From positions 1-64,000 of the forward strand of contig JAQTZB010000006.1 of NCBI GenBank assembly GCA_028688015.1: a stretch of 64,000 bases of DNA. The letters are read 5' to 3'. The notes below the pieces were generated by a model. The model made no database searches. It saw only the letters and a list, made by a program, of their open reading frames with translations, and was not told where the DNA came from. Source of the stretch: Elusimicrobiales bacterium (lineage in GTDB: Bacteria; Elusimicrobiota; Elusimicrobia; Elusimicrobiales; UBA9959). How positions within the stretch are numbered: position 1 is the stretch's first letter; the number at the start of each line of letters is the position of its first letter. Positions 7,905 to 47,295 of this stretch are shown here, one piece after another. The translations under genes and the position numbers were made by a program.

Positions 7905-8933
7905 ATGAAAGTTCCAGAAACTAAAAGCTCTAACTATACCCTGCTGGCCCTGCTGGCGCTGTTGCTGGGTATCTTCCTTTTCATGGTGTGGCCCTACCTC
8001 TTCTCCTTGTTCATGGGCCTGCTGCTGGCCATCCTCAGCCGCCCGCTCTACGAGGCGCTGCTCAAGCGCCGGCTGGGGCCGCGCACGGCGGCAGGTCTCG
8101 CCATAGCTGTCATACTGCTGGCCATCATCGCCCCGCTCACGGCCTTCGCCATAACTGCCGTAAAGCAGGCCATAGCGCTGGCCGCCTACCTGGCCGACGA
8201 GCGCGGCGCCGAGTTCATCCGCCAGGCCGTGGCCGCCGTAACCGCCCTGAAGCCGGTGCAGTGGGTTATTTCGAATCCCGGCGACCTGCAGACCAAGGGC
8301 CTGGAGTTCGCCCAAAGCGCCGGAACGGCCCTGAGCAGGGTGATCCTGGTCCAGGCGGCGGCCCTGCCCGAACTGGCCCTGAAGGTGATACTTTCCCTGC
8401 TGGCCTGGTTCTTCCTGCTTTTCGAGGGCGAGGCCTTTATGAAGTGGCTGACCGGCAAGTTGCCCATGGACGCCGGCCTGAAAGGGCGGTTGGCCCATTC
8501 CTTCCGCGCCACGGCCGCCTCTACGGTGTGGGCCACCTCGGCCGCCGCCGCCGCGCAGGCGCTGGTAGTGATGCTGGGTTTCCTGGCGCTGGGCGTGCCG
8601 GGCGTCTTCCTGGCCGGCGGGGCCACCTTCATCTTCGCCTGGATACCCATACTTGGCAGCATGCCGGTCTGCGTGGCTGCCGCGGTGTACCTGTACTTCC
8701 ACGGCTCGCTCTTCAAGCTGGCGCTGATGGGCCTGGTGGCCGTGGTGGCCGGCCTGATGGATAACGTGGTGCGCCCTATAGTAATGAAGGGACACGCGGA
8801 CATGCACCCGCTGCTGGCCCTGGTCTCCATCTTCGCGGGTATCAACATGTTCGGCCTGCTGGGCGTCATCTTCGGCCCCATAGTGGCGGCCATGCTGCTG
8901 GCGCTGCTGAATTCCTGGCAGCCGCAGGCCTGA
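7905..8933 (+). CDS. AI-2E family (PerM-like) transporter
   Basis: A 342-residue polytopic membrane protein with the layout of the AI-2E/UPF0118 family: two N-terminal helices, a hydrophilic periplasmic or cytoplasmic domain around residues 80-150, and a C-terminal helical bundle containing GVPGVFLAGGATFIFAWIPILG and the DNVVRPIV and HPLLALVSIFAG motifs typical of the family. Members export autoinducer-like molecules or Na+, and substrate cannot be told from sequence. AGGAG lies 7 nt before the ATG. The 22-nt gap from the preceding gene is compatible with one operon. Confidence 0.85.
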   Translation: MKVPETKSSNYTLLALLALLLGIFLFMVWPYLFSLFMGLLLAILSRPLYEALLKRRLGPRTAAGLAIAVILLAIIAPLTAFAITAVKQAIALAAYLADERGAEFIRQAVAAVTALKPVQWVISNPGDLQTKGLEFAQSAGTALSRVILVQAAALPELALKVILSLLAWFFLLFEGEAFMKWLTGKLPMDAGLKGRLAHSFRATAASTVWATSAAAAAQALVVMLGFLALGVPGVFLAGGATFIFAWIPILGSMPVCVAAAVYLYFHGSLFKLALMGLVAVVAGLMDNVVRPIVMKGHADMHPLLALVSIFAGINMFGLLGVIFGPIVAAMLLALLNSWQPQA

Positions 8934-8964
8934 GGCCTGGTATAGGACTTTGGTCCTAGGCCCA
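8933..8964 (+). promoter_or_regulatory. TAGGCCCA site A (before secreted deiminase)
   Basis: TAGGCCCA at 8957-8964 follows the dyad AGGAC-TTTG-GTCCT (8944-8957) and an upstream AGGCCT. A TATAAT -10 box lies at 9006-9011 and the gene starts at 9053. This is one of six exact copies of the octamer, each before a gene for an exported protein. Confidence 0.5.
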
Positions 8965-9052
8965 AGTTTACCTTTGGACCCGTGCGGGAGTGGCAGTAAT
9001 CCCGCTATAATTAGATAAGCGGTTTAGTTATATTTGGAAAAAGGCGGCTTTA

Positions 9053-10252
9053 ATGAAGAAGACTAACTTCCTGTCCCTGCTCCTGCTCGCTACCTTCTCT
9101 TCCGGGGCCTTCGCCCTGGACCTTAACAAACCTCTCCCGAACTGGATAGACCAGTCCCGGGAAAAAGCCGACGGCAAAGCGCCTATCATGGCGCCCACCG
9201 TGCGCGGCGTCACCCCTTCCGACTTCCGCATGCCGGCCGAGTACGAGCCTGTCTCCGCGGTGGCCATCGGCTGGGCCGCCTACACGCCCATGCTCTCCAG
9301 CATAGCCAAGGCCGTCACCGGCCCCGCCAACGCCCAGCTCTGGGCCGTGGGCGGACCTTCCTCCATCTCCGGCGTGCCCGCCGCCAAGTACACCAAGATC
9401 CCCGCCCCGCTCGACACCGTGTGGATGCGCGACTACGGTCCCTTCGGCGTGGCCGGCGGCCGCCCCGGCATAGTGGACTCCATCTACCGCCACTACCAGT
9501 ACCGCCGCAACGACGACGCCGTCCCCGGCGTGCTCGGCAAGGCCAAGAACATCGGCGTGTACGGCATGCCGATAATCATGGACGGCGGCAACCTGATGGT
9601 TGACAGCGCCGGCACCCTGTTCATGACCAAGCGCACCTACATCTGGAACTCCAACATGAGCGAGGAGCAGGTGAACACCCACCTGAAGAATTACCTCAAG
9701 GTCAAGAAGATCGTGACCTTCGACTACGCCGGCTACCCCGGCGAGCCCGGCGACGGCACCGGCCACATCGACATGTACGTGAAGCTGCTCAATGACAACA
9801 CCGTGCTGCTGGCGGTGACCAACGACGAGCCCTTCAAGACCGCCTGCGACAAGGCCATGGCGTGGTTCAAGGCTAACAAGGCCCCTAACGGCCAGCCTTA
9901 CAAGATCATCACCGTGAAGGCCTGGGCCACCGACGCCTGGTATACCTACACCAACTCGCTGGTGGTCAACGGCGTGGCCATCATCCCGTCCTACTCGGCC
10001 TCCACCGAGGAAGCCAACGCCAAGGCCGCCTATGAGCAGGCCGGCTACACCGTGGTGCCGGTGCCCTCCGACGACAGCATAGTCGCGGGCGGCTCCATCC
10101 ACTGCGTGACGCAGACCATTCCCGGCGCGCCCGGCAAGGTCGTGGACATGACCGACATCCCCGTGTTCCAGGACATGTCCGTCACCGTCCCCATGGCCCC
10201 GCTGTCCAACGGCTCTTCCACCGCCGTGAACCAGCTGCTGCAGGGCTTCTAA
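9053..10252 (+). CDS. Secreted agmatine/peptidylarginine deiminase family enzyme
   Basis: The 399-residue protein starts with a Sec signal peptide (about 1-22, ending FA-L) and then shows the PAD_porph fold of the guanidino-group-modifying superfamily. Key motifs are VWMRDYGPFG (substrate-binding Arg-Asp), MDGGNLM, TGHIDMYVKLL with catalytic His, and GGSIHCVTQ with the nucleophile Cys351. Agmatine deiminases with this fold are cytosolic; the exported relatives act on peptidyl-arginine, as in the Porphyromonas enzyme. The substrate here could be agmatine, free arginine or protein arginine. No C-terminal sorting domain is visible. It is preceded by a TAGGCCCA site and followed by a strong terminator, so it is monocistronic. 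Confidence 0.85.
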   Translation: MKKTNFLSLLLLATFSSGAFALDLNKPLPNWIDQSREKADGKAPIMAPTVRGVTPSDFRMPAEYEPVSAVAIGWAAYTPMLSSIAKAVTGPANAQLWAVGGPSSISGVPAAKYTKIPAPLDTVWMRDYGPFGVAGGRPGIVDSIYRHYQYRRNDDAVPGVLGKAKNIGVYGMPIIMDGGNLMVDSAGTLFMTKRTYIWNSNMSEEQVNTHLKNYLKVKKIVTFDYAGYPGEPGDGTGHIDMYVKLLNDNTVLLAVTNDEPFKTACDKAMAWFKANKAPNGQPYKIITVKAWATDAWYTYTNSLVVNGVAIIPSYSASTEEANAKAAYEQAGYTVVPVPSDDSIVAGGSIHCVTQTIPGAPGKVVDMTDIPVFQDMSVTVPMAPLSNGSSTAVNQLLQGF

Positions 10253-10269
10253 GACTTACCGGAGCAAAA

Positions 10270-10305
10270 AGAGAACCGCCGGCCGCAAGCCGGCGGTTCT
10301 CTTTT
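10270..10305 (+). terminator. Intrinsic terminator after deiminase gene
   Basis: AGAGAACCGCCGGC pairs with GCCGGCGGTTCTCT and is followed by TTTT. The stem core CCGCCGG is the same as in the terminators between 16.2 and 24.5 kb, but the tail differs. Confidence 0.85.
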
Positions 10306-10329
10306 AGGCGCGCAAAAGGTTTGCGGCGG

Positions 10330-11166: not shown

Positions 11167-11178
11167 TTTCTCTCCTCA

Positions 11179-16455: not shown

Positions 16456-17757
16456 ATGTTAACTAAAGAAGTGGTTAAAGAATTGGTTACAAGAAAAACA
16501 GAAACTAGAAGCCTTGAATATAAAGGAGGAATTGACTGGGATAAATCGGAAAAGAAGAATCGTATAGATATTCTTAAAGACATATTAGCGATGTCAAATA
16601 CCAAAGATGGAGGAGTAATTCTTATAGGATTTCAAGATAGCGACTTTTCGCTAGTTGGGCTGTCAAATGCTGAATTTAACTCTTGGGATTCAACAAAAGT
16701 TAATGATTTGTTAAAGGAGTATTCAGATCCTGGATTTGCTTGTCAGGTTTATAAATTTTCAGATTTTGATGGGGGAAGGCAAATTGTGGCTATCGAGGTG
16801 CCAGAGTTTACGGAAGATGTGATAATTTGCAAAAAGGATTGGCATGATGAACATAAGCAAGTCTTAAAACGGGGATGTATTTACATAAGAACTGATAAGC
16901 CCTCATCGGAGAGTGTTACCACAAATCAAGATATGCGGGAGCTTCTTGGTCGGGCCTTATCAAAAAAAGGGGATTCTTTACTGTCGGATATCGAAAGGTT
17001 GCTTAAAGGTAAACCAATTAGTTATGGGAATGAAGAGGCCGAAAAGTATTCTGCAGAATTGGCCGATGGTGAGAAATACTTTGCGAGTAGTATCGGGGAG
17101 TATCTGCAGCGGTATGGTTATTGGGAAGTCTCAGTTTCTCCTGTGAATTACCATCCTAAGCGCGTAGCGGATTTAAGTTTGATGCGGGAGTATATTAGAA
17201 AGGCGGAAGTCGAGCTTCGTGGTTGGGACTTTCCGCATACAGATTCAAAAGATGGATCCAACTTTTTAAATGGCTATCAGTCTGTAACTATATGGAAAGA
17301 TAAATTTTACGAAGCATATCGGGCATATGGGAGTGGTCTGTTCTTGTGGAAAAGTGCATATTGGGAAGATGTGCGGGGCTATAAAACAGATGAAGGAGAT
17401 AATTGCCTATCATTTGTGAATGTGATATGGACAATAACAGAGATAGTCTTATTTGTTAGACGTTACTATGAGCATTTGTCCTATGATGGTTCTTTGCATA
17501 TTCAAATAACTTTAAACAAAACTAAAGGACGCAGCCTAAAGCAAATAGATAGTTGGGGGTTTAGTCTTCCACATAATAAAACGACCGAGGATAGTATCCC
17601 ACTTTCTTGCGATGTGTCATTCGCGGAGTTGAAGGCTAATTTCAAGGAGTTTGCTCGTAATATGGCGCGTGATGTTTTGAGAGTGTTTAATCTTGCTGAT
17701 ATCAGTGAGCAAACAGTCGAGGACTGGCAAACAAAATTGCTTGAGCGGAAGTTTTAG
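16456..17757 (+). CDS. AlbA_2/Schlafen-type putative nucleic-acid or ATP-binding protein, AT-rich
   Basis: The 433-residue protein opens with an AlbA_2 (Schlafen-like) domain: ETRSLEYKGGIDWD (E-x-K/Y positions), GGVILIGFQDSDF, then VAIEVPEF and GCIYIRTDKPSSES with the typical R-x-G/D-S pattern, up to residue 155. The remaining 270 residues, rich in Trp and Tyr, match nothing I know. The domain is common in anti-phage and stress-response proteins and in transcriptional regulators. By eye the gene is near 40% GC against well over 60% in its neighbours, and its codon use differs, so it is recently acquired. It sits alone between terminators T3 and T4. Confidence 0.75.
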   Translation: MLTKEVVKELVTRKTETRSLEYKGGIDWDKSEKKNRIDILKDILAMSNTKDGGVILIGFQDSDFSLVGLSNAEFNSWDSTKVNDLLKEYSDPGFACQVYKFSDFDGGRQIVAIEVPEFTEDVIICKKDWHDEHKQVLKRGCIYIRTDKPSSESVTTNQDMRELLGRALSKKGDSLLSDIERLLKGKPISYGNEEAEKYSAELADGEKYFASSIGEYLQRYGYWEVSVSPVNYHPKRVADLSLMREYIRKAEVELRGWDFPHTDSKDGSNFLNGYQSVTIWKDKFYEAYRAYGSGLFLWKSAYWEDVRGYKTDEGDNCLSFVNVIWTITEIVLFVRRYYEHLSYDGSLHIQITLNKTKGRSLKQIDSWGFSLPHNKTTEDSIPLSCDVSFAELKANFKEFARNMARDVLRVFNLADISEQTVEDWQTKLLERKF

Positions 17758-17933: not shown

Positions 17934-19370
17934 ATGACAGAAATTGACTTTCTCTCTTCTCGATTCCAAAAAGCAGTTTCAAATATTCAAAGTCGCGCTG
18001 AGCGATTCCCAGATGATCCGATTTTGCTGCGACAGTCCTTTGTGGATATGGGGCTGCTGGAGCAGCTGACAAATAATCGCAATCAAGTTGTTACGGGTAG
18101 GCGCGGTACCGGGAAATCACACTTGTTGCGTGCGATGGAAAGTGATATTTTGCGCGAAGGCGGATTGTATTACTTTCTTGACTGTCGTGAGTTAGGAAGC
18201 GGACCCTTATCTGTTTTTGGTGATTCCTCTACCGTTATCGGTAGCCGATGGTATGGTTCAATGATAAAGCGCATAACGAGTTTTGCGTTTGATGAGGTGC
18301 TACGTAGGGAAACTCTATCTGATGCGCAAAAAGACTCGGCTACTGACCCGCTAAATCAAATTAGTGATTTACTTCTAGAGCATAAGTATGCGGATATTGG
18401 CCGGTGCTTTGAGAAATATCTCGGTAAGCTCGGGGCAAAGTATTTTACGATTGTCTTTGATGAGTGGGTGCAAATTCCGAAAGAAGCTCAGCCGTACACA
18501 GCGGAACTGCTGAAGCGAACCTTTATCGCCACTAAAACAATCAACTTCAAAATTGCTGCGATTCCATTGTATACGAAGTTTATGTGTCGCACTGCCAATG
18601 AGCGGGCTGGCTTGGAGGTTGGGGCAGATGTATTTGCGGATTTGGATCTGGATACATTTTTGATTTACGATAAAAACAAGGAGGCTGTAGAGAGATTCTA
18701 TGCGGACGTGCTCTTTCGCCACTTAAATCTTGGGGATGGCCTAGACTATAAAACAACGCATGATTGGATTGTGCGAAACTGTTTTACAAGGCGCGATGCT
18801 TTCCAGGAGATGGTCCGTGCGGCTGAAGGTGTGCCGCGTGATTTTCTTCACATATTTGTGCATAGTTATCGCGATGCCTTTCGTGACCGCGCTCAACATC
18901 AAAAAATATCGTTGCCAATTATTCGTAAGGCAGCCGAGAAATGGTACTTGGATGATAAGTTTGAGTCTGTCCGCGAGGCTACGGGTTTAACTAAACTTCT
19001 TCAGGCGATAATTGATGAGGTTCTTGCCGGTAAGCGTGCTCGAATGTTTATTATCGAGCAGGAAATGTCTGGCCATCCTCTAATCATGCAGCTTATTGAC
19101 GCTCGTCTTCTTCATCTGGTTCGTCGCGGATGGGCGCATAAAGAAAACCCTGGCGCAAGATATGATGTTATGGCAATTGACTATGGCGCATACGCTAGCA
19201 GAATAAATACTGCAAGCCAACCTGAACTTGAGCTGTTAAATCTTAATCATGAGTCTATTAAAGAGGGTGAGATGGTCGTCCCATTTGACGATATGCGTGC
19301 AATAAGGCGTGTTGAACTAAAGAGAGAGTTTTTGTCTAGGTTTGAGGTTGAGGGAGATAGTGAACGCTGA
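17934..19370 (+). CDS. P-loop ATPase (ORC/STAND-like), possible defence gene
   Basis: This 478-residue protein has a Walker A motif GRRGTGKS (55-62) and a Walker B FTIVFDEW (about 171-178), then an extended helical C-terminal half. The order and the Phe-Asp-Glu box suggest an AAA/ORC-like or KAP/Sll1717-like P-loop ATPase of the kind often found in defence islands; no nuclease, TIR or transmembrane effector is recognisable. Base composition, about midway between the AT-rich AlbA gene and the GC-rich core, suggests independent acquisition. The gene is flanked by terminators T4 and T5 and has its own upstream region, so it is not an operon partner of its neighbour. Confidence 0.7.
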   Translation: MTEIDFLSSRFQKAVSNIQSRAERFPDDPILLRQSFVDMGLLEQLTNNRNQVVTGRRGTGKSHLLRAMESDILREGGLYYFLDCRELGSGPLSVFGDSSTVIGSRWYGSMIKRITSFAFDEVLRRETLSDAQKDSATDPLNQISDLLLEHKYADIGRCFEKYLGKLGAKYFTIVFDEWVQIPKEAQPYTAELLKRTFIATKTINFKIAAIPLYTKFMCRTANERAGLEVGADVFADLDLDTFLIYDKNKEAVERFYADVLFRHLNLGDGLDYKTTHDWIVRNCFTRRDAFQEMVRAAEGVPRDFLHIFVHSYRDAFRDRAQHQKISLPIIRKAAEKWYLDDKFESVREATGLTKLLQAIIDEVLAGKRARMFIIEQEMSGHPLIMQLIDARLLHLVRRGWAHKENPGARYDVMAIDYGAYASRINTASQPELELLNLNHESIKEGEMVVPFDDMRAIRRVELKREFLSRFEVEGDSER

Positions 19371-25601: not shown

Positions 25602-25609
25602 TTGGCCTA
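25602..25609 (-). promoter_or_regulatory. TAGGCCAA near-match, site G
   Basis: Read on the minus strand, CTAGGCCAAAG matches site B CTAGGCCCAAAG-type sequences with one C missing. It lies 54 nt before the exported MBL-fold gene. Confidence 0.3.
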
Positions 25610-25712
25610 GTGGTGAATCCGGATTAAGGTCCGGAGGTGGATACTTCCCGGCCAATCCCGGGAATTACACAGAAGCCTGCTATATCGTATGGTTAATGTT
25701 GATTTCGCTCAA

Positions 25713-25770
25713 GGGCCTAAAGACCTATATTGGCATAGGCCCAAAGACCTATAAGGGCATAGGTCTAAGT
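25713..25770 (+). promoter_or_regulatory. TAGGCCCA site B with 24-bp tandem repeat
   Basis: GGGCCTA (25713-25719) and TAGGCCCA (25736-25743) form an inverted pair. The element AAAGACCTATA-NNGG-CATAGG is repeated head-to-tail at 25719-25742 and 25743-25766 with a period of 24 bp, a little over two helical turns. The exported gene at 25863 follows. Confidence 0.55.
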
Positions 25771-25862
25771 ATCCGGCCCGTCTGGGTACTATGGGGCTGA
25801 CGGTTTTTTGAGGCGGGGGTATACTGTAGGTGTAGCTGAAAGCGCGGTAGAGGAGGCGGACG

Positions 25863-26639
25863 ATGAAAAAACTTCTTGCGTTAAGCGTAGCCGCGACGGC
25901 GCTGTTCTCGGGCCGTGTATCCGCCGGGGAGGTCACTGACCCCCGGTATTTTTCTGCCGACGAAAGCTCTATAGTTATAGAAGAGATAAAGGAAGGGGTT
26001 ACGCCCCTGCCCGAGGGGCTCCTGATGCCCCCCGCTACCAAGCCTATAGGGGAGATCATAGGCACGCTGGACTCCATCGTCAACCTCTTCGAGAAGATCT
26101 GGAACATCATAGAGAAGAACCAGCCGGTGGTGAACGTCACCACCCACTACGCCAACGCGGTGCCTTTCGGCACCAGCCACTGGTCGCAGCTGCAGGGCTG
26201 GAGCCGCCCCGCCACCAAGCGCTACGGCTTCTCCATGAAGAACGGTTTCGGCTCGGAAGTGGTGAAGGTGGTTTACCAGGTGCACTACACCCACAGCGGC
26301 AACTATAAAGGCAAGGGCAAGTTCCTGACCGGGGTTACCATCGAGCCCATCAGCGTTACCACCGCCTGGGGGTATAAGGTTACCCTGGTGTCCGAGGTGC
26401 CGGATTCCACCATCGCCAACGTGGGCACGCACGAGGACCCCGTGGCCTCCATGCAGGTGCAGCTGCGCTGGACCGTGCACACCTCCGTGAAGGACATCAC
26501 CTCCAAGGCCATCTACTACATAGAGGGCAACGGCCAGCTGCAGGAGCTCGGCGCGCCCTTCAAGAACGCCCAGGCGCAGAAGGAAAAGGCCCTGCTCGAG
26601 GCGGCCGGCAACAGGCTGACGAACGTTAACTTTAACTGA
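25863..26639 (+). CDS. Secreted protein of unknown function
   Basis: A 258-residue exported protein with a 21-residue signal peptide ending SAG. I recognise no family. The mature part has an acidic N-terminal helix region (IEEIKEGVTPLPEG, then GTLDSIVNLFEKIWNIIEK) and a beta-rich domain containing VVKVVYQVHYTHSGNYKGKG, which suggests a sandwich fold. AGAGGAGG lies before the ATG, and the promoter CTGACG-17-TATACT is preceded by site B. A terminator follows, so it is monocistronic. Confidence 0.65.
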   Translation: MKKLLALSVAATALFSGRVSAGEVTDPRYFSADESSIVIEEIKEGVTPLPEGLLMPPATKPIGEIIGTLDSIVNLFEKIWNIIEKNQPVVNVTTHYANAVPFGTSHWSQLQGWSRPATKRYGFSMKNGFGSEVVKVVYQVHYTHSGNYKGKGKFLTGVTIEPISVTTAWGYKVTLVSEVPDSTIANVGTHEDPVASMQVQLRWTVHTSVKDITSKAIYYIEGNGQLQELGAPFKNAQAQKEKALLEAAGNRLTNVNFN

Positions 26640-32690: not shown

Positions 32691-34553
32691 TCACTTGGGC
32701 CTGGGCACCTCGGATGGTCTGGTTTCGGAATCGGCGTCCAGCAAGCCCTCGCGCCATTCGTCAAGCCTGCGCTGCGCTTCCGCCGCCCTCTGGAGGCGGT
32801 AACGGGCCGCGGCGAAGGAGGCGCGCTCGTAGTCCAGGTATTCCTTCAGCTTCGTCCGCTCCTGCGCAGTCATCAGATCCGGGTCGTCCTTGTACTTCGC
32901 CTTCAGCGCCGCCGCCTCGCGCGCGCCGATCGAGCCGCTCGCCAGGATGCGCGCGCTGGCCGTCTCGTCGGTGTGATCTATTACGCGGTAGCCGTCGTAG
33001 GTGTGCTTGCGCGCGCGCAGCGCCTCCACGCCGTCTTCCAGGTAGATCTCGGCGTCGCGCACTGCGTGGGGGTGCGAGTTCTGGGCGTAGGCCGGGCCGG
33101 CCTTCTGCATCTTCTCGGCCGTGAAGGCGGCGCCTACGCCGAAGGCCTCTACTTCGCGCTCTATCGTCCGGTGCATGCCGTCGTTGAATTGCGGGTGCAG
33201 GGTGCGTTCTTCCACTTCCTGCCGGTGGTGCGCCGCCTCGTGTACGAAGGTGGGGGCTATGTAGGACGCCAGGCCCTGCATCAGCTTCTCGTCCTTCAGG
33301 ATGTCGGCTGCGGCAACGCCCCGCTGACGGGCATAGTCCTCTATCATCCGGGTGTTGACGCGTATGTAAGGGGGATCCTTGTAGTAGCAGGTGCCGAAAT
33401 TCCCGGGCTTGTTCCTGTCGAACGCGAAGTCCAGCTTGTTGCGGCCGTCGGGGCGGGGCGTGTTGTAGAAAGCGAGGGTCTGATCGCCGGCCTTCGTGCC
33501 GCTTATTTCGCTGGCGAGGTAGCCCTTCAGTTTCCCGTCCTCGCCGTAGGAGAACATCTTGGCGGAGATCTTGGCCGCATCGTCATTGTCTACGGCCCTG
33601 TACTTGCCTGGATGGAAGATGCGCTGCAGCGTGGTGGGGGGAGGAGTGTAGCCGCCGGGGACATAGTTGTCGAAGGCCTGGTCCAGGAAGCCTTTCTGCG
33701 CTGCGGCTCCCCTGGCCGCGGCCAGGCGCTCGTTGGCCGCCTTGAGCTGCAGTTCTTTCTTTTCGGCACTTGAGATCCCGGGCGGGAGGGCGGGTTCGGC
33801 GCGCAGCAGTTCCACGTCCAGCATCAGCTTGTTGAGCTTGCCGTAGTACTCATAGGCCTTAGCCGGCGGCGGGTCCTTGATGATCAGGTCCTGCTTGAGC
33901 TCTTCTATAACCGCTACCAGGTCCGGGTTTTTCAGCAGCGCTTTTTTGCCCGCATCCAGCAGTGCTTCGGAGTCCTTCTGGGCGCTGGCGGACAGCTTTT
34001 CGTAGCGGGCGCGGATATCTTTGGCGTTCCAGCTGGCCTCGTCCAGGCCCTCCGCCTGCAAAACGCTGCGGCGGGCCTCGCTAAGCGAGGTCCAGGTGCG
34101 CAGCGAGCGGCGCACGGTGACGCCGCGGTCCGGCAGGTAGTTGTCCACCCAGCCGAAGATCTTTTCGGGCCGTGGGCCGAGGCCCAGCAGGCAGGGGTAG
34201 CAGTCCTTGGTCTCCAGTTCCCTGACAAGGGCGTAGCCGAGGTCGGATTCCTTGTACTTGCCGCAGACCTTCCCGAGGCTTACGAGCGAATTATTGTAGA
34301 GCAGGATGAGACCGGTGTTCCGTTCCACTTGCGACGCGCGTTCCAGCAGGTCTTCCTTGGCGCTCAGGTCCCTGACGCAGTCCTGAGCTTTTTCCGGGGA
34401 GAAGATCCGCTCACTGGTGTCGATATTCCTGGAGCAGGCCTGGACCAGTTGGGCCTCCTCCTGCGTAATGAGGGGGGCTTCCGCGGCGAGGGCGAGCCCC
34501 GGCAACAGCAGTAGCGACAGCGCCAATTTAAAAAGTATTTTTCCTTTCCCCAT
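32691..34553 (-). CDS. Secreted HEAAH-motif protein, candidate zinc metallopeptidase
   Basis: The start is placed at MGKGKILFKLALSLLLLPG, the beginning of a clear signal peptide; the longer frame runs through the promoter. The 620-residue product has a helical N-terminal part with several Cys, a middle helical region, and at about residue 437 the zincin motif HEAAHH, followed about 25 residues on by EREVEAFGVG, which could supply the third ligand. Long charged helices fill the C-terminus. I know no close family; a secreted peptidase is a reasonable hypothesis. The promoter is consensus (TTGACA-17-TATACT) with the ATG 7 nt after the -10, so the mRNA should be leaderless. Confidence 0.65.
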   Translation of the reverse strand: MGKGKILFKLALSLLLLPGLALAAEAPLITQEEAQLVQACSRNIDTSERIFSPEKAQDCVRDLSAKEDLLERASQVERNTGLILLYNNSLVSLGKVCGKYKESDLGYALVRELETKDCYPCLLGLGPRPEKIFGWVDNYLPDRGVTVRRSLRTWTSLSEARRSVLQAEGLDEASWNAKDIRARYEKLSASAQKDSEALLDAGKKALLKNPDLVAVIEELKQDLIIKDPPPAKAYEYYGKLNKLMLDVELLRAEPALPPGISSAEKKELQLKAANERLAAARGAAAQKGFLDQAFDNYVPGGYTPPPTTLQRIFHPGKYRAVDNDDAAKISAKMFSYGEDGKLKGYLASEISGTKAGDQTLAFYNTPRPDGRNKLDFAFDRNKPGNFGTCYYKDPPYIRVNTRMIEDYARQRGVAAADILKDEKLMQGLASYIAPTFVHEAAHHRQEVEERTLHPQFNDGMHRTIEREVEAFGVGAAFTAEKMQKAGPAYAQNSHPHAVRDAEIYLEDGVEALRARKHTYDGYRVIDHTDETASARILASGSIGAREAAALKAKYKDDPDLMTAQERTKLKEYLDYERASFAAARYRLQRAAEAQRRLDEWREGLLDADSETRPSEVPRPK

Positions 34554-34640: not shown

Positions 34641-34656
34641 TGGGCCCTTGGGCCTA
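34641..34656 (-). promoter_or_regulatory. TAGGCCCA site F
   Basis: Minus-strand TAGGCCCA (34656-34649) is followed at once by AGGGCCCA (34648-34641). It lies 60 nt upstream of the consensus -35 box of the HExxH protein gene. The divergent exported gene at 34725 could share it. Confidence 0.5.
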
Positions 34657-34724
34657 TTGCCGGCAGGGTCCATGGGCGCTTACGCCGGCAAGCGCCGTGA
34701 GCCATACTATCGTTGAGGCCCCTT

Positions 34725-35363
34725 ATGAAAAACATCATCCTTGCGGCGGCGATAATGGCGGTGGGCGCGGGCGCGGCTAAAGCCGCTGTCGGCGCGGCCG
34801 GTTTCGACGCCCTGGCCCGGTCGGTCATGAGCGGCGCTTCCCGCGCAGAGGTCGCGGTGCCCGGGATCCCTTCGCCTTCTTTCGCCGAAACCAGCGCCCC
34901 TAAAACTTTTGCCGATTACGAATATGACGCCGCCGCGGGCGCCAGGCTGGGAGCCGCCGCGGCTAAAGGCAACCTGGGCGCTTTCTACGGCAGGTGCTAC
35001 GAATATGTCTCCTACCACATGGAGGCCGCGGGCGTGATACGGCCCGAGCAGTGGGACCAGCTCAGGATAGGCCCGGACTACGCCGCCGACTTCGCCGAAT
35101 GGGCCGTGGCCAATCCCGAGGTTATGCGCCGCGAGCTGAAGCTGGTTAAGATCCCCACGCCCTCCGACAAAATGGCGATACCGGTGGGCAGCATCATAGT
35201 CTACGAGCGCGGCGCCTGCGGCTTCAGCAGGAAGGCCGGCCACATCGAAGTTGTCACCAAAGCCGACTGGGCCTGCTCGGACGGCTGCGAGAGCCTGGAC
35301 CAGGCCTGCTTCGAAGACCCCGCCGTCAGCGCCCGCATCCACGTCATCGTCCCGGTAAAATAG
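34725..35363 (+). CDS. Secreted protein with CHAP/NlpC-like Cys and His motifs
   Basis: The start is at MKNIILAAAIMAVGAGA, a signal peptide, not at the in-frame codon 12 nt upstream. In the 212-residue product, GRCYEYVSYHME (Cys near residue 90) and GHIEVVTKADW (His near 170) resemble the catalytic Cys and His blocks of CHAP/NlpC-P60 type peptidoglycan amidohydrolases, with KIPTPSDKMAIPVGSIIVYE in the typical strand before the His. The resemblance is by pattern only. A bidirectional terminator follows. Confidence 0.6.
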   Translation: MKNIILAAAIMAVGAGAAKAAVGAAGFDALARSVMSGASRAEVAVPGIPSPSFAETSAPKTFADYEYDAAAGARLGAAAAKGNLGAFYGRCYEYVSYHMEAAGVIRPEQWDQLRIGPDYAADFAEWAVANPEVMRRELKLVKIPTPSDKMAIPVGSIIVYERGACGFSRKAGHIEVVTKADWACSDGCESLDQACFEDPAVSARIHVIVPVK

Positions 35364-37846: not shown

Positions 37847-37905
37847 GGGCCTAGGCGGCGTCTGGGCCCTGTATAGGGGACCATTGGTCCTAGGAGCTAG
37901 GCCCA
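37847..37905 (+). promoter_or_regulatory. TAGGCCCA site C
   Basis: GGGCCTA (37847-37853) and TAGGCCCA (37898-37905) bracket the perfect dyad GGACC-ATT-GGTCC (37878-37890). Downstream are TTACCG (37913-37918), 17 nt, and the extended -10 TGATAGACT (37933-37941), with the start codon 6 nt later. Confidence 0.55.
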
Positions 37906-37947
37906 ACGACACTTACCGTTCCTTTACCAGGCTGATAGACTATTGGT

Positions 37948-39216
37948 ATGAAAAAGCTTATCCTCGCGGTCATAGCGGCGGCTAATTTCACGGCGGCGGG
38001 CAACGCCGGGGAATTCGGCCTCGAAACCATGAGCGTGTCGGAACTGAAGGCTTCGCAGCAGACGCTGCAGGCCGTTCCGGTGCCGGTGCAGCCCGAGCTG
38101 CTGGGCATGGACAGGTCGCCCAACCAGCCTTCCCCGGTGCTGGACCTGACCATCAAGCTGCCCTTCCTCTCCCTGAGCTCCCGCCTCAAGGAGCTGCCCG
38201 GCATAAAGATGCAGCCCATTAACCCCGGCGCCCCCATCCTCTTCAAGCAGGGCGAGAACATCGCCTTCAGCAACGTGGCCGTGGACTATAACGGCATCGA
38301 GGTGGAGCCCACCCTCCTGATCAAGCCCGTTTTCGAAGGCGAGAACAAGCTCTCCATAAAGGTCGTTAAGGTAGAGGCTGACATAGCCTTCGGCCCCAAC
38401 AAGGCCCTGCCCCAGCAGCTCGACAAGGACGGCCTGATGGAAATGGTGATGACCAACCTCACCACCGGCATGCTGCAGTCCATGGACGAGGCCTTCGCCA
38501 AGAACAAGGTGCCGCTGCGCGCCAAGGACGTGCTGACCTTCAGCTACGACCGCCGCAGCTGGACCCTGCGCGCCAACGTGAACCCCAATTTCATCGCCCC
38601 GCTGATGCCCAACCTCATCAGCAATGTCAGCCTGCGCAACTTCACCTTCGACGCCGAGGGCTTCGCCCTCAGCGTGAAGAGCGGCTCCATGAACGCGGTC
38701 CAGCAGCCCGGCTATAACCTGGCCGTGTCCGACGGCCTGCTGGACAACTTCATCGCCCAGTTCACCAAGCAGGGCGACTTCCAGTTCCACCCGCAGGGCC
38801 ACGAGGGCGGCCTGAAGTTCCGCCAGGACGGCCGCCTGGAAGTGGCCGGCAAGATCTACGCCCGCGACGTGTTCGGCAAGCCCAACGTCTACTTCAAGGC
38901 CACCATCCTCCCCGAGCTCATCGGCCCCAACACCCTGCGGGTCAAGGTGGAGCGCGTGGACGTGGACCAGGCCTACGGCATCGGCATCCCCGGCTTCATC
39001 AACAACTGGATCCAGGGCAAGGTCATCCGCTCCATCACCGAGACCCTGACCACCAACGCCGAACTGGCCAAGGTGATGACCGCCACCAAGCTCGATGACA
39101 AGACCGTGCGCATCGTCCTCAAGAACAGCGCTTTCATGCCCTCCTTCGCCAAGGGCGCCGTGATACAGAAGCTCAAGATAAGCAACGGCATGATGTACCT
39201 GGGCTTCGAGCTGTGA
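37948..39216 (+). CDS. Secreted protein, long paralogue of the pair
   Basis: A 422-residue exported protein with an approximately 20-residue signal peptide ending GNAG. The first 240 residues share a clear layout with the next gene: a MSxxELKA/DDIRA helix after the signal peptide, PVLDLTIKLPF, a KQGENIAFSNV segment, PTLLIKPVFEGENKLSIKV and YDRRSWTLRANVNP. The second half appears to be a further beta-rich repeat (VAGKIYARDVFG, LRVKVERVDVDQ), giving an elongated lipid-transfer-like or adhesin-like beta structure, but I cannot name the family. Extended -10 box 6 nt before the ATG implies a leaderless mRNA; TAGGCCCA site C precedes it. Confidence 0.65.
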   Translation: MKKLILAVIAAANFTAAGNAGEFGLETMSVSELKASQQTLQAVPVPVQPELLGMDRSPNQPSPVLDLTIKLPFLSLSSRLKELPGIKMQPINPGAPILFKQGENIAFSNVAVDYNGIEVEPTLLIKPVFEGENKLSIKVVKVEADIAFGPNKALPQQLDKDGLMEMVMTNLTTGMLQSMDEAFAKNKVPLRAKDVLTFSYDRRSWTLRANVNPNFIAPLMPNLISNVSLRNFTFDAEGFALSVKSGSMNAVQQPGYNLAVSDGLLDNFIAQFTKQGDFQFHPQGHEGGLKFRQDGRLEVAGKIYARDVFGKPNVYFKATILPELIGPNTLRVKVERVDVDQAYGIGIPGFINNWIQGKVIRSITETLTTNAELAKVMTATKLDDKTVRIVLKNSAFMPSFAKGAVIQKLKISNGMMYLGFEL

Positions 39217-39239: not shown

Positions 39240-39965
39240 ATGAAAAAACTCACTCTTAACCTGATAGCCCTGGCCCTGCTGGCCGGCAACGCGGCCGCCT
39301 TCGACCTGACGGGCATGGGCGCCGACGACATCCGCGCGGCGCAGGCGGACTTCAGGGCCCCGGCCCCGCAGGCCCAGCCCGCCGACGACCTGATCGGCCT
39401 GGATATGAATATCCGCATCCCCTACGCCACCGTCAAGAAGGGCGTGGAGCAGGTGGCCGCCTCCGAGCGCCGCCTGACCCTGATAGACAAGAGCGCGCCG
39501 GTGGCCTTCAAGTACGGCGAGTTCCTGCGCATCAGCAATATCAAGATAGACCAGGGCGGCATCATAGTGGTCCCCACCCTGACCCTGAAGCCCTACTTCG
39601 TGGGCACCGACAAGCTGGCCATCCGCGTACAGCGCATCCAGCTGCACGCCTCCATGGAGCCCTCCGTGAAAGCCGCCCCCATGCCGGCCATCAACGAGGA
39701 AGAGATCATGGTGCAGGTTATGGACGTGCTGATAAAGGGCACCTACTCCGCCGTCAACGACTTCCTGAAGAAGAAGCAGATCCCGATGAAGGCCGAGGAC
39801 GTCATCAAGCTGCGCTACGACAAGGCCGCCTGGACCCTGCACGCGCAGGTCTCCTCCAAGGTGCTGGGCCAGTTCATCCCCGCGGGTTTCATGGGCGAGC
39901 TGCACCTGACCGGCTTTGCCTTCAACGACCGCGGCCTGACCCTTACCGTGCAGACCCCCAACTAA
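39240..39965 (+). CDS. Secreted protein, short paralogue of the pair
   Basis: The start is at MKKLTLNLIALALLAGNAAA with AAGGAG upstream; an in-frame codon 27 nt earlier overlaps the preceding gene. The 241-residue protein matches the first half of its neighbour along its whole length: LDMNIRIPYATV, FKYGEFLRISNIKIDQGGI, PTLTLKPYFVGTDKLAIRV and YDKAAWTLHAQVSSK. The gap of 23 nt means an operon born by tandem duplication, followed by loss or gain of the C-terminal half. Function unknown. Confidence 0.65.
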   Translation: MKKLTLNLIALALLAGNAAAFDLTGMGADDIRAAQADFRAPAPQAQPADDLIGLDMNIRIPYATVKKGVEQVAASERRLTLIDKSAPVAFKYGEFLRISNIKIDQGGIIVVPTLTLKPYFVGTDKLAIRVQRIQLHASMEPSVKAAPMPAINEEEIMVQVMDVLIKGTYSAVNDFLKKKQIPMKAEDVIKLRYDKAAWTLHAQVSSKVLGQFIPAGFMGELHLTGFAFNDRGLTLTVQTPN

Positions 39966-43873: not shown

Positions 43874-43891
43874 CCTCAGGTTTTCTCCGGC

Positions 43892-45232
43892 TCAGTAAGG
43901 GTACTGGTAGCCGCCGGAAACGTAGGTTATGGTGAACTGCGTGCCGGCCACGTTCTTCTCGAGGATTATCATCCCCTGCGAGGCGAGGGCGGCGGCCGTC
44001 TCTGCGGCGGCGCGCTGCGCGTCGCTGCCGAAGGTGTAGTTCCCGCTGACGTATTTCTGCGTCTGCAGGTTGTACGGGGCGAGGAACACTATGTTATAAG
44101 AAGTGCCGGTCAGGCGCTTCTCCAGCACCACCACGCCGTTGACGCGCTTGAGCGCCTCGGCGGTCTCGGCCATGGAGCGCTGGGCGTCGCTGCCGAAGAT
44201 GAAGTTGCCGCTGGCGTAGTTCTGCGTCTCCAGCCTGCGGTGGTACTGGTAGACTATGGTGTAGGAGGTGCCTTCCAGGCGCTTCTCCAGGATCACCGCG
44301 CCTATGCCCTGCAGGGCCGCCGCGGTCTCGGTCAGGGAGCGCTGGGCGTCGCTGCCGAAGACGAAGTTGCCGCTCCGGTAGGTCTGCTGCTGCGCGTAGC
44401 TGCCGTAGGAGGCCAGGTAGCTGACAGTGAAGCTGGTGCCGGCGACGTTCTTTTCGAGCACCACCTTGCCCTGGCCTTCCATGGCCCTGACGAATTCATC
44501 GGCGGCGCGCTGCGCGTCGCTGCCGAACACGAAGTTGCCGCTGACATATTTCTCCACCTTCAGGCTGGAGGGGGCGAGGAAGACCAGCGTGTAGGAGTTA
44601 TAGTCGTTGCGCTTCTCAAGCACGGTGTAGCCGGCGCGCTGCAGGGCGGCCGCCGCGGCCTCCATGGACTGCCGCGCGTCGCTGCCGAACACGAAGTTGG
44701 AACTTTGGAAGCGGAACTGCTGCGTCTGCACCGCGGGCGGGTAGTAGGGCGGATAGCCGGGCTGGCCGGGATTCACCGGTGGGTAGACCGGGGGATAGAC
44801 CGGCGGATAAACCGGAGGGTAAACCGGGGGATAGCCGGGCTGGCCGGGGTGCACAGGCGGGTAGACGGGGTGGCTCGGGTTTACCGGGGGATAGGACGGG
44901 TGAGTCGGATGGCCGGGGTTCACCACCGGGGGATAGGACGGATGCGTCGGCTGCGTGGGGTGCGTCGGCTGCGTGGGGTGCGTCGGATGCGTGGGATGGG
45001 TCGGCTGCGTGGGGTGCGTCGGATGCACCTGCGGCGGCTGATGCGGCTGGCCGGGCTGCTGGTGCACGGGCTGCGGCACGCCGGGCTTGGGCGGCTGCTG
45101 CTGATGGCTGCCGCCGGTCTGGACGGTAAAGCCGGCTTTCTCCAGCTCGGCCGACATGGTCTCTACTGTGGCGGCCTTCGCGGCGCTGGCCACGGCGAAG
45201 ACGGCGGCTGTAAATAAGGCTAATTTTTTCAT
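43892..45232 (-). CDS. Secreted Pro-rich protein with five FGSDAQR repeats
   Basis: The start at MKKLALFTAAVFAV is behind GGAGGAAT. The 446-residue product has a signal peptide (1-20), a Pro/His/Tyr-rich tract (about 44-168) made of HPT/QPT and PVYPP/PGYPP units, and then five units of about 55 residues (174-229, 230-286, 287-340, 341-395, 396-446). Each unit has the consensus SGNFVFGSDAQRS, an amphipathic helix ETAxAL, then VVLEKxxxGTSYTIVYLA. The alternation of helix and two strands suggests a bead-like repeat domain; the Pro tract would be an extended stalk or wall-spanning segment. I know no described family. Preceded by TAGGCCCA site D. Confidence 0.75.
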   Translation of the reverse strand: MKKLALFTAAVFAVASAAKAATVETMSAELEKAGFTVQTGGSHQQQPPKPGVPQPVHQQPGQPHQPPQVHPTHPTQPTHPTHPTHPTQPTHPTQPTHPSYPPVVNPGHPTHPSYPPVNPSHPVYPPVHPGQPGYPPVYPPVYPPVYPPVYPPVNPGQPGYPPYYPPAVQTQQFRFQSSNFVFGSDARQSMEAAAAALQRAGYTVLEKRNDYNSYTLVFLAPSSLKVEKYVSGNFVFGSDAQRAADEFVRAMEGQGKVVLEKNVAGTSFTVSYLASYGSYAQQQTYRSGNFVFGSDAQRSLTETAAALQGIGAVILEKRLEGTSYTIVYQYHRRLETQNYASGNFIFGSDAQRSMAETAEALKRVNGVVVLEKRLTGTSYNIVFLAPYNLQTQKYVSGNYTFGSDAQRAAAETAAALASQGMIILEKNVAGTQFTITYVSGGYQYPY

Positions 45233-45340
45233 ATTCCTCCCCAAAACTTGCTGCTCTATAGTTACAGGATATGATTATTGAGCATCTTCCTCTACGGGCC
45301 AAAGTCCCAAAAATCGCAACTATTAAGACCTATGCGGAAC

Positions 45341-45355
45341 TGGGCCTATCGGCCC
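45341..45355 (-). promoter_or_regulatory. TAGGCCCA site D
   Basis: On the minus strand GGGCC-GA-TAGGCCCA (45355-45341), followed by CATAGGTCTT (45334-45325), a sequence shared with site B. It lies 109 nt before the repeat-protein start. Confidence 0.5.
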
Positions 45356-45369
45356 GGCCGGCGGCGGCG

Positions 45370-45398
45370 TTGATATTAAGGAATGTCTTTTATAGTAT
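45370..45398 (+). promoter_or_regulatory. dinB promoter, leaderless start
   Basis: TTGATA (45370-45375), 17 nt, TAGTAT (45393-45398), then 6 nt to the dinB ATG. An overlapping TATAGT starts 2 nt earlier. Confidence 0.6.
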
Positions 45399-45404
45399 TA
45401 AGGG

Positions 45405-46574
45405 ATGGAGCGGCGCATAGTGCACGTGGACATGGACGCTTTCTTCGCGGCCATAGAGCAGCGCGATAATCCCGCGCTGCGGGGCCGCCCCGTCATAGTA
45501 GGCGCCGATCCACAGGGCGGGCGCGGGCGCGGGGTGGTCTCCACCTGCTCTTACGAGGCGCGCAAGTTCGGCGTGCGCTCCGCCATGCCGATCTCGGAGG
45601 CGTGGCGCCGCTGCCCGCAGGGTGTTTTCTTGCCGCCCGATTTCGCCAGGTACGAAGAGGCCTCCGGCCTGATCCGCCGGGCCTTCTATGAATTCACGCC
45701 CGACCTGGAGCAGGTCAGCATAGACGAGGCCTTCCTGGACATCACCCGCAGCGCCCACCTCTTCGGCGGGCCGCTGGAAACCTGCCGCCGCATCAAGCGG
45801 CGGGTCAGGGAGCTCACCGGTCTCTCTTGCTCGGTCGGCCTCGCTCCCACGAAAATGGCCGCCAAGATAGCCTCGGACCTCAAAAAGCCGGACGGCCTGG
45901 TGGTGGTGGAGGCGGCCGGCCTGCGGGCCTTCCTCTCTCCGCTGGATATCTCCAAGCTCTGGGGGCTGGGGCCCAAGACCGCGGCACTGCTGCGTGAGCG
46001 CGGGATAAACACGGTGGGGGAACTGGCCGCCGCGCGGGACAGCGACCTGCTGGCGCTGGGCAGCGGCGGCCCCGCGCTGCGGCTGCTGGCGCTGGGCGAG
46101 GACCCGCGCGAGGTGCGCGAGGATTACGAGACTAAGTCGGTGGGCAATGAAACCACCTTCGGCGCCGATACGGGCGACGAGCGCGAGATCAGGGAATCCC
46201 TGGTGGCATTGTCGGACAAGGTGTCCTCGCGGCTGCGGGAGGGCGGCTTCAAGGGCCGCACTATTACGCTGAAGATACGGCTGGAGGGGTTTGAAACCTA
46301 TACGCGCGCCAGGACCCTGCCGTTCTCCACCAACTACGCCGACATAATTTCCAAAGAGGCGCTGGCGCTTTACGCGGCCTTCGAGAGGGGGCGCAAAAAG
46401 GTGCGCCTGCTGGGCGTAAAGGTCTCCGGCCTGATGCCGGCCGGCGAGAAGGAAAGCCTTTTCGAGGAAGAGGGCGATGACCGCCGCGAAAAGGCCCACA
46501 AGGCCATAGAAGCCATCCGCGGGAAATTCGGCCGGTCCTCCATCTACAGGGCCGGCGGCAAAAAAGATATCTAG
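45405..46574 (+). CDS. dinB: DNA polymerase IV (Y family)
   Basis: The 389-residue protein is an error-prone translesion polymerase. Motifs: MERRIVHVDMDAFFAAIE (metal-binding Asp and the steric-gate Phe), YEARKFGVRSAMP, VSIDEAFLDIT (second catalytic Asp-Glu pair), SVGLAPTKMAAKIASDLKKPDG, then two HhH motifs (KLWGLGPKTAALLRERGI) and the little-finger domain. No C-terminal beta-clamp motif of QLxLF type is obvious; the tail ends with KSSIYRAGGKK-type sequence. It converges with the TetR gene, overlapping by 4 nt. Confidence 0.95.
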   Translation: MERRIVHVDMDAFFAAIEQRDNPALRGRPVIVGADPQGGRGRGVVSTCSYEARKFGVRSAMPISEAWRRCPQGVFLPPDFARYEEASGLIRRAFYEFTPDLEQVSIDEAFLDITRSAHLFGGPLETCRRIKRRVRELTGLSCSVGLAPTKMAAKIASDLKKPDGLVVVEAAGLRAFLSPLDISKLWGLGPKTAALLRERGINTVGELAAARDSDLLALGSGGPALRLLALGEDPREVREDYETKSVGNETTFGADTGDEREIRESLVALSDKVSSRLREGGFKGRTITLKIRLEGFETYTRARTLPFSTNYADIISKEALALYAAFERGRKKVRLLGVKVSGLMPAGEKESLFEEEGDDRREKAHKAIEAIRGKFGRSSIYRAGGKKDI

Positions 46575-47224
46575 AGCTTAGTCCAGGGCAGGAGGGGGGA
46601 GCGGCCGGCGTGTTTCCAGCCGGTGAGGGCGCAGACCAGGTCGCCCCATTTCTTTTCCAGCTCGGCCGCGGTCACGGCGCCGTCCGGGGCCGAGGCGGCG
46701 TAGAGCATTGCGCCGAACAGCGCGTCCTGGATCGTTTCGGTCACGGCCGCCGGGTCGCCCTTCAGCTTGAAGAGGCCTTCACGTTCGCCCGCCAGCAGGT
46801 GCTCCAGGATCCTTTCGCGGCCCTTGGCTATCATGTCCTTGAAAACCCCGGCAAAGGCCCCGCCCCTGCCGGCCAGGTAGTAGAGCAGCAGCAGGATCTG
46901 CCCGTCCTGCTTCTTAGAGCGCAGCGCCCAGGCTACGTTCCCCAGGCAATGCTTCAGCAGGCGGCGGCCCGCGCCGTCTCCGGGCTCCATCAGCGCGCTG
47001 ACCGTCTCGTGGTTGTGGGCGATTATAGTGCGGACCAGCTCTTCGAACAGCGCGTTCTTGTCGCGGAAATGATACATCACGGCCGACTGGCTAAGGCCCA
47101 CGTCGTCGGCCACCATCTGGAAGCTGGCGTCGGCGAAGCCGTGCTTGGCCGCCAGCTTGATGGCGGAGAGCACTATCTTGCGGCGGGTCTGTTCGCCTTT
47201 GGTCGTTTCTGGACGGGCCTTCAT
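46571..47224 (-). CDS. TetR family transcriptional regulator
   Basis: A 217-residue protein with the TetR N-terminal HTH: TRRKIVLSAIKLAAKHGFAD, FQMVADDVGLSQSAVMYHFR and DKNALFEELV. The C-terminal helical domain has no close match to a ligand class I can name. A minus-strand TAAAAT at 47232-47237 lies 7 nt before the ATG, so the mRNA is probably leaderless. The target is unclear; the divergent neighbour at 47390 is 165 nt away and is the natural candidate. Confidence 0.9.
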   Translation of the reverse strand: MKARPETTKGEQTRRKIVLSAIKLAAKHGFADASFQMVADDVGLSQSAVMYHFRDKNALFEELVRTIIAHNHETVSALMEPGDGAGRRLLKHCLGNVAWALRSKKQDGQILLLLYYLAGRGGAFAGVFKDMIAKGRERILEHLLAGEREGLFKLKGDPAAVTETIQDALFGAMLYAASAPDGAVTAAELEKKWGDLVCALTGWKHAGRSPLLPWTKL

Positions 47225-47272
47225 AATTAGGATTTTACCTTATTTTCAGGCGCCGGCAAGGGCTGCGGTAAA

Positions 47273-47295
47273 GGGCCTAGCGCGGCGTAGGCCCA
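47273..47295 (+). promoter_or_regulatory. TAGGCCCA site E
   Basis: GGGCCTA (47273-47279), 8 nt, TAGGCCCA (47288-47295), followed by the separate 15-bp palindrome GACCCGT-G-ACGGGTC (47298-47312), which could be the operator of the divergent TetR protein. Confidence 0.55.

What the first reader, a model, noticed from the sequence alone, without database searches (positions are those of the whole stretch)
8933..47295. TAGGCCCA octamer marks a group of exported-protein genes
Exact TAGGCCCA copies lie at 8957, 25736, 37898 and 47288 (plus strand) and 34656 and 45348 (minus strand), 40-130 nt before a start codon and always oriented toward it. Three have a clear GGGCCTA partner upstream (25713, 37847, 47273), and 45355 has GGGCC. 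All six downstream genes encode Sec signal peptides (deiminase, unknown 25863, paralogous pair, repeat protein, small secreted protein, HEAAH protein), although only about one third of genes here are exported. A near-copy precedes a seventh exported gene (25602). I saw no exact copy inside a gene. This looks like an operator of a secretome regulon whose regulator is not known to me.
Basis: partly seen in the sequence, partly recalled or inferred. Interest (0 to 1): 0.78.

Follow-up and report, generated by a model that had tools for sequence, protein, structure and literature searches.

The report
Shared switch for secreted enzyme genes
In Elusimicrobia bacteria, a repeated palindromic DNA site placed at fixed distances upstream of promoters marks genes for secreted proteins, many of them degradative enzymes, so an unidentified regulator probably controls them together.

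Summary
The six TAGGCCCA copies are real and all intergenic, but the octamer is only a fragment. The element is a 16-bp dyad, TRGGNCYWWRGNCCYA (two inverted heptamers, 2 bp apart), often in tandem copies 24 bp apart. Its centre tends to lie about 30, 54 or 77 nt upstream of a -10 box, so the nearest copy abuts the -35 region. The window's genome holds 37 sites with at most one mismatch; 30 precede exported-protein genes (27 of 34 intergenic regions; base rate 29 of 139). It is conserved upstream of relatives in the genus. Exact sites are enriched in five families of the same class (762 against 49 for the reversed pattern) and nearly absent from other Elusimicrobiota classes (2 in 103 genomes). 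Downstream genes include many secreted hydrolases: trypsins, clostripains, phospholipase D-like proteins, a deiminase, subtilase, papain. The regulator is unidentified: two CRP/FNR proteins and the neighbouring TetR do not fit the phylogenetic pattern. The geometry resembles NarL/BvgA tandem dimers. The "near-copy" at 25602 lies at the edge of a 2'-deoxyguanosine riboswitch.

The parts
8943..8958 (.). distal dyad TAGGACTTTGGTCCTA (14 of 14), upstream of the deiminase gene 9053-10252; the octamer at 8957 straddles its end
   Evidence: -10 TATAAT 55 nt from centre; upstream regions of relatives keep a dyad (27 of 30 score >=11)
8967..8982 (.). proximal, degenerate dyad unit (10 of 14), 24 bp downstream of the distal one, next to the -35 region
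   Evidence: relatives show a similar second block by eye
9053..10252 (+). exported Porphyromonas-type peptidyl-arginine deiminase family protein
   Evidence: PF04371 E=1.9e-41; signal peptide by rule
25712..25775 (.). array of three dyad units at 24-bp steps (25712-25727 score 13, 25736-25751 score 14, 25760-25775 score 11)
   Evidence: (TRF period 24)
25605..25675 (-). 2dG-II riboswitch between the dyad array and exported gene 24562-25542(-); explains the near-copy at 25602
   Evidence: 67.9 bits
24562..25542 (-). metallo-beta-lactamase-fold (ComEC-like) protein with a signal-peptide-like N-terminus (my rule called it TM); -10-like TACGAT 54 nt from the 25736 centre, hence 30 from the 25712 unit
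   Evidence: ComEC models concern one of 47 proteins, which I take to be this one
25863..26639 (+). exported protein of unknown family, with paralogues in the genome
   Evidence: no Pfam match
34641..34656 (.). dyad TGGGCCCTTGGGCCTA (14 of 14) between two exported genes; weaker unit at 34665-34680 (11)
32691..34553 (-). exported HEAAH-containing protein
   Evidence: no Pfam match
34725..35363 (+). exported protein with a sub-threshold CHAP match
   Evidence: E=7.7e-5, below the curated cut-off
37876..37913 (.). two dyad units 22 bp apart (37876-37891 score 10, 37898-37913 score 11); the second has its centre 30 nt from -10 TAGACT
37948..39216 (+). exported protein, first of a paralogous pair (second 39240-39965); match in 28 of 32 genus genomes
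   Evidence: no Pfam match
45294..45356 (.). dyad units at 45294-45309 (30 nt from one of two equal best -10 candidates, TATCCT, of the minus-strand gene) and 45341-45356 (contains the octamer)
43892..45232 (-). exported repeat protein
   Evidence: no Pfam match
47264..47303 (.). distal unit with only its right half kept (47264-47279, score 11) and dyad TAGGCCCATAGACCCG (47288-47303, score 13), 30 nt from -10 TACAAT
47390..47836 (+). small secreted protein
   Evidence: no Pfam match
46571..47224 (-). TetR-family gene sharing the divergent region; considered and disfavoured as regulator

Best explanation
The element is an operator array for one dimeric transcription factor, most likely an activator, that controls a subset of secreted-protein genes, with many extracellular hydrolases, in the class to which these Elusimicrobia belong. 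Each dimer binds a 16-bp dyad TRGGNCY-WW-RGNCCYA. Dimers stand in tandem, mostly every 24 bp, at preferred distances from a sigma-70-type -10 box (centres about 30, 54 and 77 nt upstream of it, roughly -43, -67 and -90 from the start of transcription if that is 7 nt after the box). The nearest dimer abuts the -35 region and would contact RNA polymerase; upstream dimers would help it cooperatively. Shown by computation: the dyad, its 24-bp period, its register to predicted -10 boxes, its place before exported genes in the window's genome, and enrichment across five families. Inferred: that a protein binds it, that it activates, that one factor serves all sites. Guessed (about 0.35): that the factor is a NarL/FixJ-type response regulator, because the 7-2-7 dyad and tandem placement resemble NarL and BvgA promoters.
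For: Association with exported genes: 17 of 59 against 1 of 89 intergenic regions, discovery set; 20 further stretches; 27 of 34 regions. Period and register: (mean dyad score 7.9 and 7.4 at +24 and -24 against a mean of 5.0 over offsets beyond 6; 23.3 of 47 promoters in register against 4.5 expected, none of 2000 random placements reaches it), repeated in other families (11 of 21 against 2.0; 5.7 of 14 against 1.2). Conservation. Phylogenetic spread. Geometry precedent.
Against: No regulator was found. The -35 hexamers of dyad promoters are not weak (mean 3.3 of 6 matches in 33 against 2.7 in 112, the two sets were picked differently), which does not favour strict activator dependence. Association was not significant in small samples of G039, G027 and G028, nor at >=13 in the larger G027 sample. 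7 of 37 sites precede no gene that passes the export rule. About half of the promoters are out of register. Signal peptides were called by a home-made rule that errs (it calls the TetR protein, a RuvA-like protein and some enzymes exported), and the consensus was tuned on the discovery set.
Confidence: 0.8

Rival explanations
1. The regulator is a CRP/FNR-family protein: the dyad can also be read as 5-6-5, like a CRP site, and centres near -43 and -67 could suit it.
For: Geometry only (recalled). Genus genomes hold CRP-type HTH genes (31 of 32); G000 has A (L302) and B, FNR-like with CX2CX5C (L157), and one weak third match.
Against: Neither A nor B has a relative at E<=1e-3 in gut-family genomes such as G024 and G073 (12 and 18 exact dyads, control 0). 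G027 has only a 6e-6 match to A and none to B, yet carries the array. Two f2 genomes, G157 and G161, do have both. A and B were the only CRP queries; a divergent member is not excluded.
Confidence: 0.05
2. The TetR-family protein encoded at 46571-47224, divergent from 47390, is the regulator and represses these genes.
For: It shares an intergenic region with a dyad (47288), and TetR sites are short palindromes (recalled).
Against: Strong relatives (E<=6.6e-65) occur in 19 of 32 genus genomes; the other 13 have only weak matches (E>=1.7e-10). Of those 13, G005, G013 and G014 keep dyads upstream of 37948 relatives, and G005 also upstream of its 25863 relative. No hit at E<=0.01 in the sampled half of G027. 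Sites lie upstream of the -35, not over the promoter core.
Confidence: 0.03
3. It is an RNA element (attenuator, terminator or riboswitch) formed by the inverted repeats.
For: Dyads can form short stems; riboswitches occur in some of the same regions.
Against: The dyads tend to lie upstream of the predicted -10 at fixed distances, so they would not be transcribed from that promoter; no Rfam family matches them in the window.
Confidence: 0.03
4. It is a dispersed intergenic repeat or a composition effect, and the link with exported genes is incidental.
For: Several GGCC-containing words are commoner between genes than inside them here, and most single octamers are genic.
Against: The reversed pattern gives 0 exact sites in this genome and 49 against 762 across five families; the low-GC genome G027 (39.7% G+C in the sample) shows it too; other classes have 2 sites against 20 reversed in 103 genomes (summed by hand); preferred register to the -10.
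Confidence: 0.03
5. It is a site for a sigma-54 enhancer-binding protein.
For: Sigma-54 has been proposed as a controller of the bacterial exterior (PMC3162934, title and passages seen).
Against: The promoters have TATAAT-type -10 boxes.
Confidence: 0.02

Closest known systems
NarL promoters of E. coli (ogt, yeaR-yoaG)
   Same: 7-2-7 inverted heptamers; a site abutting -35, centred at -44.5 at ogt; activation also from -67.5 in an engineered promoter (PMC7419079, passages seen)
   Different: Different heptamer letters (NarL's TACYNMT is recalled); ogt sites are centred at -44.5 and -77.5, not 24 bp apart; different genes; the regulator here is unknown
BvgA promoters of Bordetella (fhaB, ptx)
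   Same: Head-to-head dimers in tandem at constant spacing, the nearest abutting -35; at fhaB a strong site furthest upstream; controls virulence genes including exported proteins (PMC7250471, passages seen)
   Different: 22-bp spacing on one DNA face against mainly 24 bp here; unrelated site letters; no BvgA counterpart identified
CRP/FNR operators
   Same: 16-bp-scale dyads near -41.5 and -61.5 (recalled)
   Different: The two CRP-family proteins tested are absent from many dyad-bearing genomes

Membership tests
NarL/FixJ-type (7-2-7) operators | two inverted heptamers separated by 2 bp | tested here: met
   TRGGNCY-WW-RGNCCYA; base counts at 34 sites
NarL/FixJ-type (7-2-7) operators | nearest site abuts the -35 region | tested here: met
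   one class of centres lies about 30 nt upstream of the predicted -10 hexamer; start sites not mapped
NarL/FixJ-type (7-2-7) operators | NarL heptamer consensus | tested here: not met
   TRGGNCY differs from the recalled TACYNMT
NarL/FixJ-type (7-2-7) operators | bound by a NarL/FixJ protein | not testable with these tools
   such proteins exist in G000 (L155) and G027 (L349, L370), but residues at recalled base-contact positions differ between them by eye, so no candidate is named
BvgA-type arrays | tandem dimers every 22 bp | tested here: not met
   main period 24; 22 in the 37948 promoter
CRP/FNR regulon | regulator present wherever the operator is | tested here: not met
   for proteins A and B only
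TetR regulon of gene 46571-47224 | regulator present wherever the operator is | tested here: not met
Secretome regulon | operator enriched before exported genes over other genes | tested here: met
   in the window's genome; weaker and threshold-dependent in G027; not significant in small samples of G039 and G028

The most novel reading that the evidence does not exclude
One previously undescribed regulator, ancestral to a whole class of Elusimicrobiota, switches the extracellular degradome (proteases, phospholipase D-like proteins, nuclease, murein enzymes) as a unit through cooperative 24-bp dimer arrays. In some members 2'-deoxyguanosine riboswitches are stacked behind the same promoters, so that scavenging or lysis of other cells is governed by one signal and tuned by released nucleosides.
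Probability: 0.3. Interest if true: 0.75.

Novelty: new member of a known kind. Interest (0 to 1): 0.63.

Why it matters
Most Elusimicrobiota in these searches are known only as MAGs, and I found no description of a regulon of this kind in them. A class-wide operator gives a handle on a whole secreted-enzyme programme, predicts which unknown proteins belong to it, and makes its regulator findable by a DNA pull-down or by phylogenetic profiling. The dimer spacing and register also offer a deeply conserved example of tandem-dimer promoter architecture outside the model phyla.

Tried and rejected
Octamer as the operator: rejected, 31 of 48 genomic copies are inside genes. Near-copy at 25602 as an operator: rejected, it is at the edge of the riboswitch. 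CRP-A, CRP-B and the TetR neighbour as regulator: rejected by presence/absence. Autoregulated transcription-factor gene: in the window and 40 stretches, regions scoring >=11 without an exported neighbour were listed; none showed an obvious transcription factor, judged by eye from the first 150 residues. NarL/FixJ signature search in held sequence: one in G000 (L155) and two in half of G027 by tblastn, too different to name. Shared N-terminal motif in the mature proteins: proline-rich stretches seen by eye, not tested. Literature: searches showed no report of this element (listings only; the library is open-access only). Two wanted papers were not held. PMC11495043 (passages) counts Elusimicrobiota among the phyla with the fewest predicted extracellular proteins in activated-sludge MAGs, a point against a large degradome in that setting.

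Rows left out: the no-dyad comparison set used 52 of 64 proteins, leaving out 12 from site-selected pieces. The footprint test used 28 of 30 loci for 37948 (L071 and L080 had too little upstream DNA; one of the 28, L079, is a likely paralogue), 30 of 30 for 9053, and 8 of 30 for 25863 (the rest were paralogues or partial matches). In one search five loci were printed in the wrong orientation (L059, L071, L072, L118, L130); one search uses the strands given. Family sums were typed by hand. Several stretches were placed around octamers, so the test is not blind; those were placed by eye at round coordinates with the octamer places known, and hold no octamer. The base rate has no 300-nt limit, whereas the site test has.
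Full report
Observation. TAGGCCCA occurs six times in the window at the stated places. Shuffling gives a mean of 2.58, and 4 of 100 shuffles reach six, so the number is only mildly unusual; the placement is striking, 6 in 5,831 intergenic nt and 0 in 58,169 coding nt. Genome-wide there are 48 copies; 31 are inside called genes and 17 intergenic, 14 of the 17 next to a gene that my rule calls exported (counted by hand). The window lies in an Elusimicrobiota genome: relatives of gene 37948 come from records titled as Elusimicrobia or Elusimicrobiota/Elusimicrobiales MAGs in 18 of 22 loci, the other 4 being titled only 'bacterium'.

What the element is. Upstream regions of relatives from the genus showed that the octamer is part of a larger dyad. 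I first scored TAGGNC-N4-GNCCTA, then, having seen those hits, fixed the consensus TRGGNCYWWRGNCCYA (14 scored positions) and kept it unchanged. It is two inverted heptamers with a 2-bp centre. At 8957 the octamer is out of register, straddling a perfect dyad at 8943-8958.

Association with exported genes. In the discovery set (window and 20 stretches), intergenic regions scoring >=12 number 17 of 59 before exported genes and 1 of 89 before others (not blind, since some stretches were chosen near octamers and the consensus was tuned here). In 20 further stretches, none holding an octamer: 4 of 28 against 0 of 89 (p=0.003), and at >=11, 10 of 28 against 6 of 89 (p=0.0004). Small samples were not significant at >=12: G039 1 of 16 against 1 of 41, G027 1 of 6 against 2 of 24, G028 1 of 3 against 1 of 29. 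Genome-wide, 37 sites have at most one mismatch (the reversed control pattern gives 12), 12 of them exact (reversed control 0). Of the 37, 30 have an exported gene starting within 300 nt, 5 another gene and 2 none. By intergenic region this is 27 of 34, against 29 of 139 in the further stretches, p=5e-13. The export rule is home-made and errs: it calls the TetR protein of the window and some enzymes exported.

Array and register. Around the best site of 47 promoters the dyad score peaks at +24 and -24 (7.9 and 7.4 against a mean of 5.0). Peaks at 7, 8 and 16 also occur; I read them as self-similarity of the arms. The distance from dyad centre to the best-scoring -10 hexamer clusters at 30, 54 and 77: 23.3 of 47 fall in those windows, random placement gives 4.5, and none of 2000 placements reaches the observed value. 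The windows were chosen after seeing the histogram, and the 47 include genes from site-selected pieces, so the independent checks matter. In other families, 11 of 21 sites fall in the same windows against 2.0, and in the sampled half of G027, 5.7 of 14 against 1.2. Taking the start of transcription as about 7 nt after the -10 box, dimers would be centred near -43, -67 and -90.

Conservation and spread. Upstream regions of relatives score >=11 in 28 of 28 (gene 37948), 8 of 8 (25863) and 27 of 30 (9053). Same-length pieces inside the genes do so in 18%, 9% and 6%. At >=12 the figures are 15 of 28, 8 of 8 and 24 of 30, against 3%, 0% and 0.2%. The contrast is weakest for 37948. Across 198 genomes of the phylum (sums typed into), exact sites against reversed control are: f1 146 against 18 in 18 genomes, f2 270 against 16 in 52, f5 45 against 1 in 3, f7 281 against 10 in 15, f8 20 against 4 in 1. 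Families f3, f4, f6 and f9 of the class have 2, 0, 1 and 0 in 1, 2, 2 and 1 genomes. The other 103 genomes have 2 in all, against 20 reversed. I read 38 of the 109 exact sites of five genomes of f2, f5 and f7: 21 precede a gene that passes the rule (one of these is a RuvA-like false call, with a true signal-peptide gene on its other side), and several of the 17 others look like signal peptides by eye. In half of G027, 11 of 84 exported against 6 of 192 other regions score >=12 (p=0.004), but at >=13 it is 3 of 84 against 4 of 192 (not significant); two of the six others look like signal peptides by eye.

What the genes do. Of 47 dyad-bearing genes (including divergent neighbours such as the TetR gene and a TonB receptor gene that has a cobalamin riboswitch), Pfam finds 5 trypsin, 5 clostripain and 3 phospholipase D-like proteins, and single M14, S8, papain, deiminase, endonuclease I, murein and deacetylase enzymes (25 of 30 families shown). 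NCBIfam adds an M6 metalloprotease domain. Among 52 exported proteins without the dyad the commonest families are CsgG, TPR and outer-membrane efflux, with hydrolases too (two M28, an amidase, MltA, GDPD) (only 25 of 81 families are shown, so single hydrolases may be hidden, and by eye a trypsin-like protein is among them). So the regulon is a part of the secretome that looks enriched in extracellular hydrolases, not the secretome as such; I did no statistical test of that enrichment.

Regulator. Two CRP-family proteins might fit the geometry, but both are absent from gut genomes with many dyads. The TetR neighbour has only weak matches in 13 of 32 genus genomes, including three that keep the dyads. 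A sigma-54 activator is unlikely (together with the -10 boxes). The closest functional parallel is the NarL/FixJ family: NarL sites are 7-2-7 inverted repeats and activate from -44.5 and, in an engineered promoter, from -67.5 (PMC7419079, passages). BvgA binds as tandem head-to-head dimers every 22 bp with the last abutting -35 (PMC7250471, passages). NarL/FixJ-type proteins exist in G000 and G027, but I cannot name one. Activation is inferred from position; -35 hexamers are not notably weak.

Side findings. A 2dG-II riboswitch lies at 25605-25675 minus between the dyad array and a metallo-beta-lactamase-fold gene. A second lies directly behind a dyad promoter in L252. I searched the window, 20 site loci and 7 stretches and found these two. 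That suggests, but does not show, that products of DNA breakdown feed back on some members.

Verdict. A conserved operator-like system, not reported as far as five library searches show (listings only). It is a new member of a known kind, with its regulator open.

Noticed in passing
window 25605-25675 (-) and L252 2481-2551 (-): 2dG-II (2'-deoxyguanosine) riboswitches downstream of dyad promoters; by eye the one in L252 is followed by a terminator-like hairpin and a 53-aa exported peptide.
   Followed up: partly
L034 8988-9134 (-): Cobalamin riboswitch before a TonB receptor gene, in the same divergent region as a dyad for a clostripain-like gene.
   Followed up: no
window 16456-17757 and 17934-19370 (+): Two long ORFs that my gene caller, trained on this genome, did not pick up, suggesting unusual codon usage.
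   Followed up: no
window intergenic regions: The word ACCGCCGG (both strands) occurs 18 times in 5.8 kb of intergenic DNA of the window but 5 times in 40 kb of other intergenic DNA.
   Followed up: no
L157 12616-13338 (-): CRP-family protein with an FNR-like CX2CX5C N-terminus (by eye), with strong matches in the seven genus genomes sampled.
   Followed up: partly
N-termini of dyad-bearing proteins: Many show a proline-rich stretch soon after the signal peptide, by eye; a common propeptide or linker is possible but untested.
   Followed up: no
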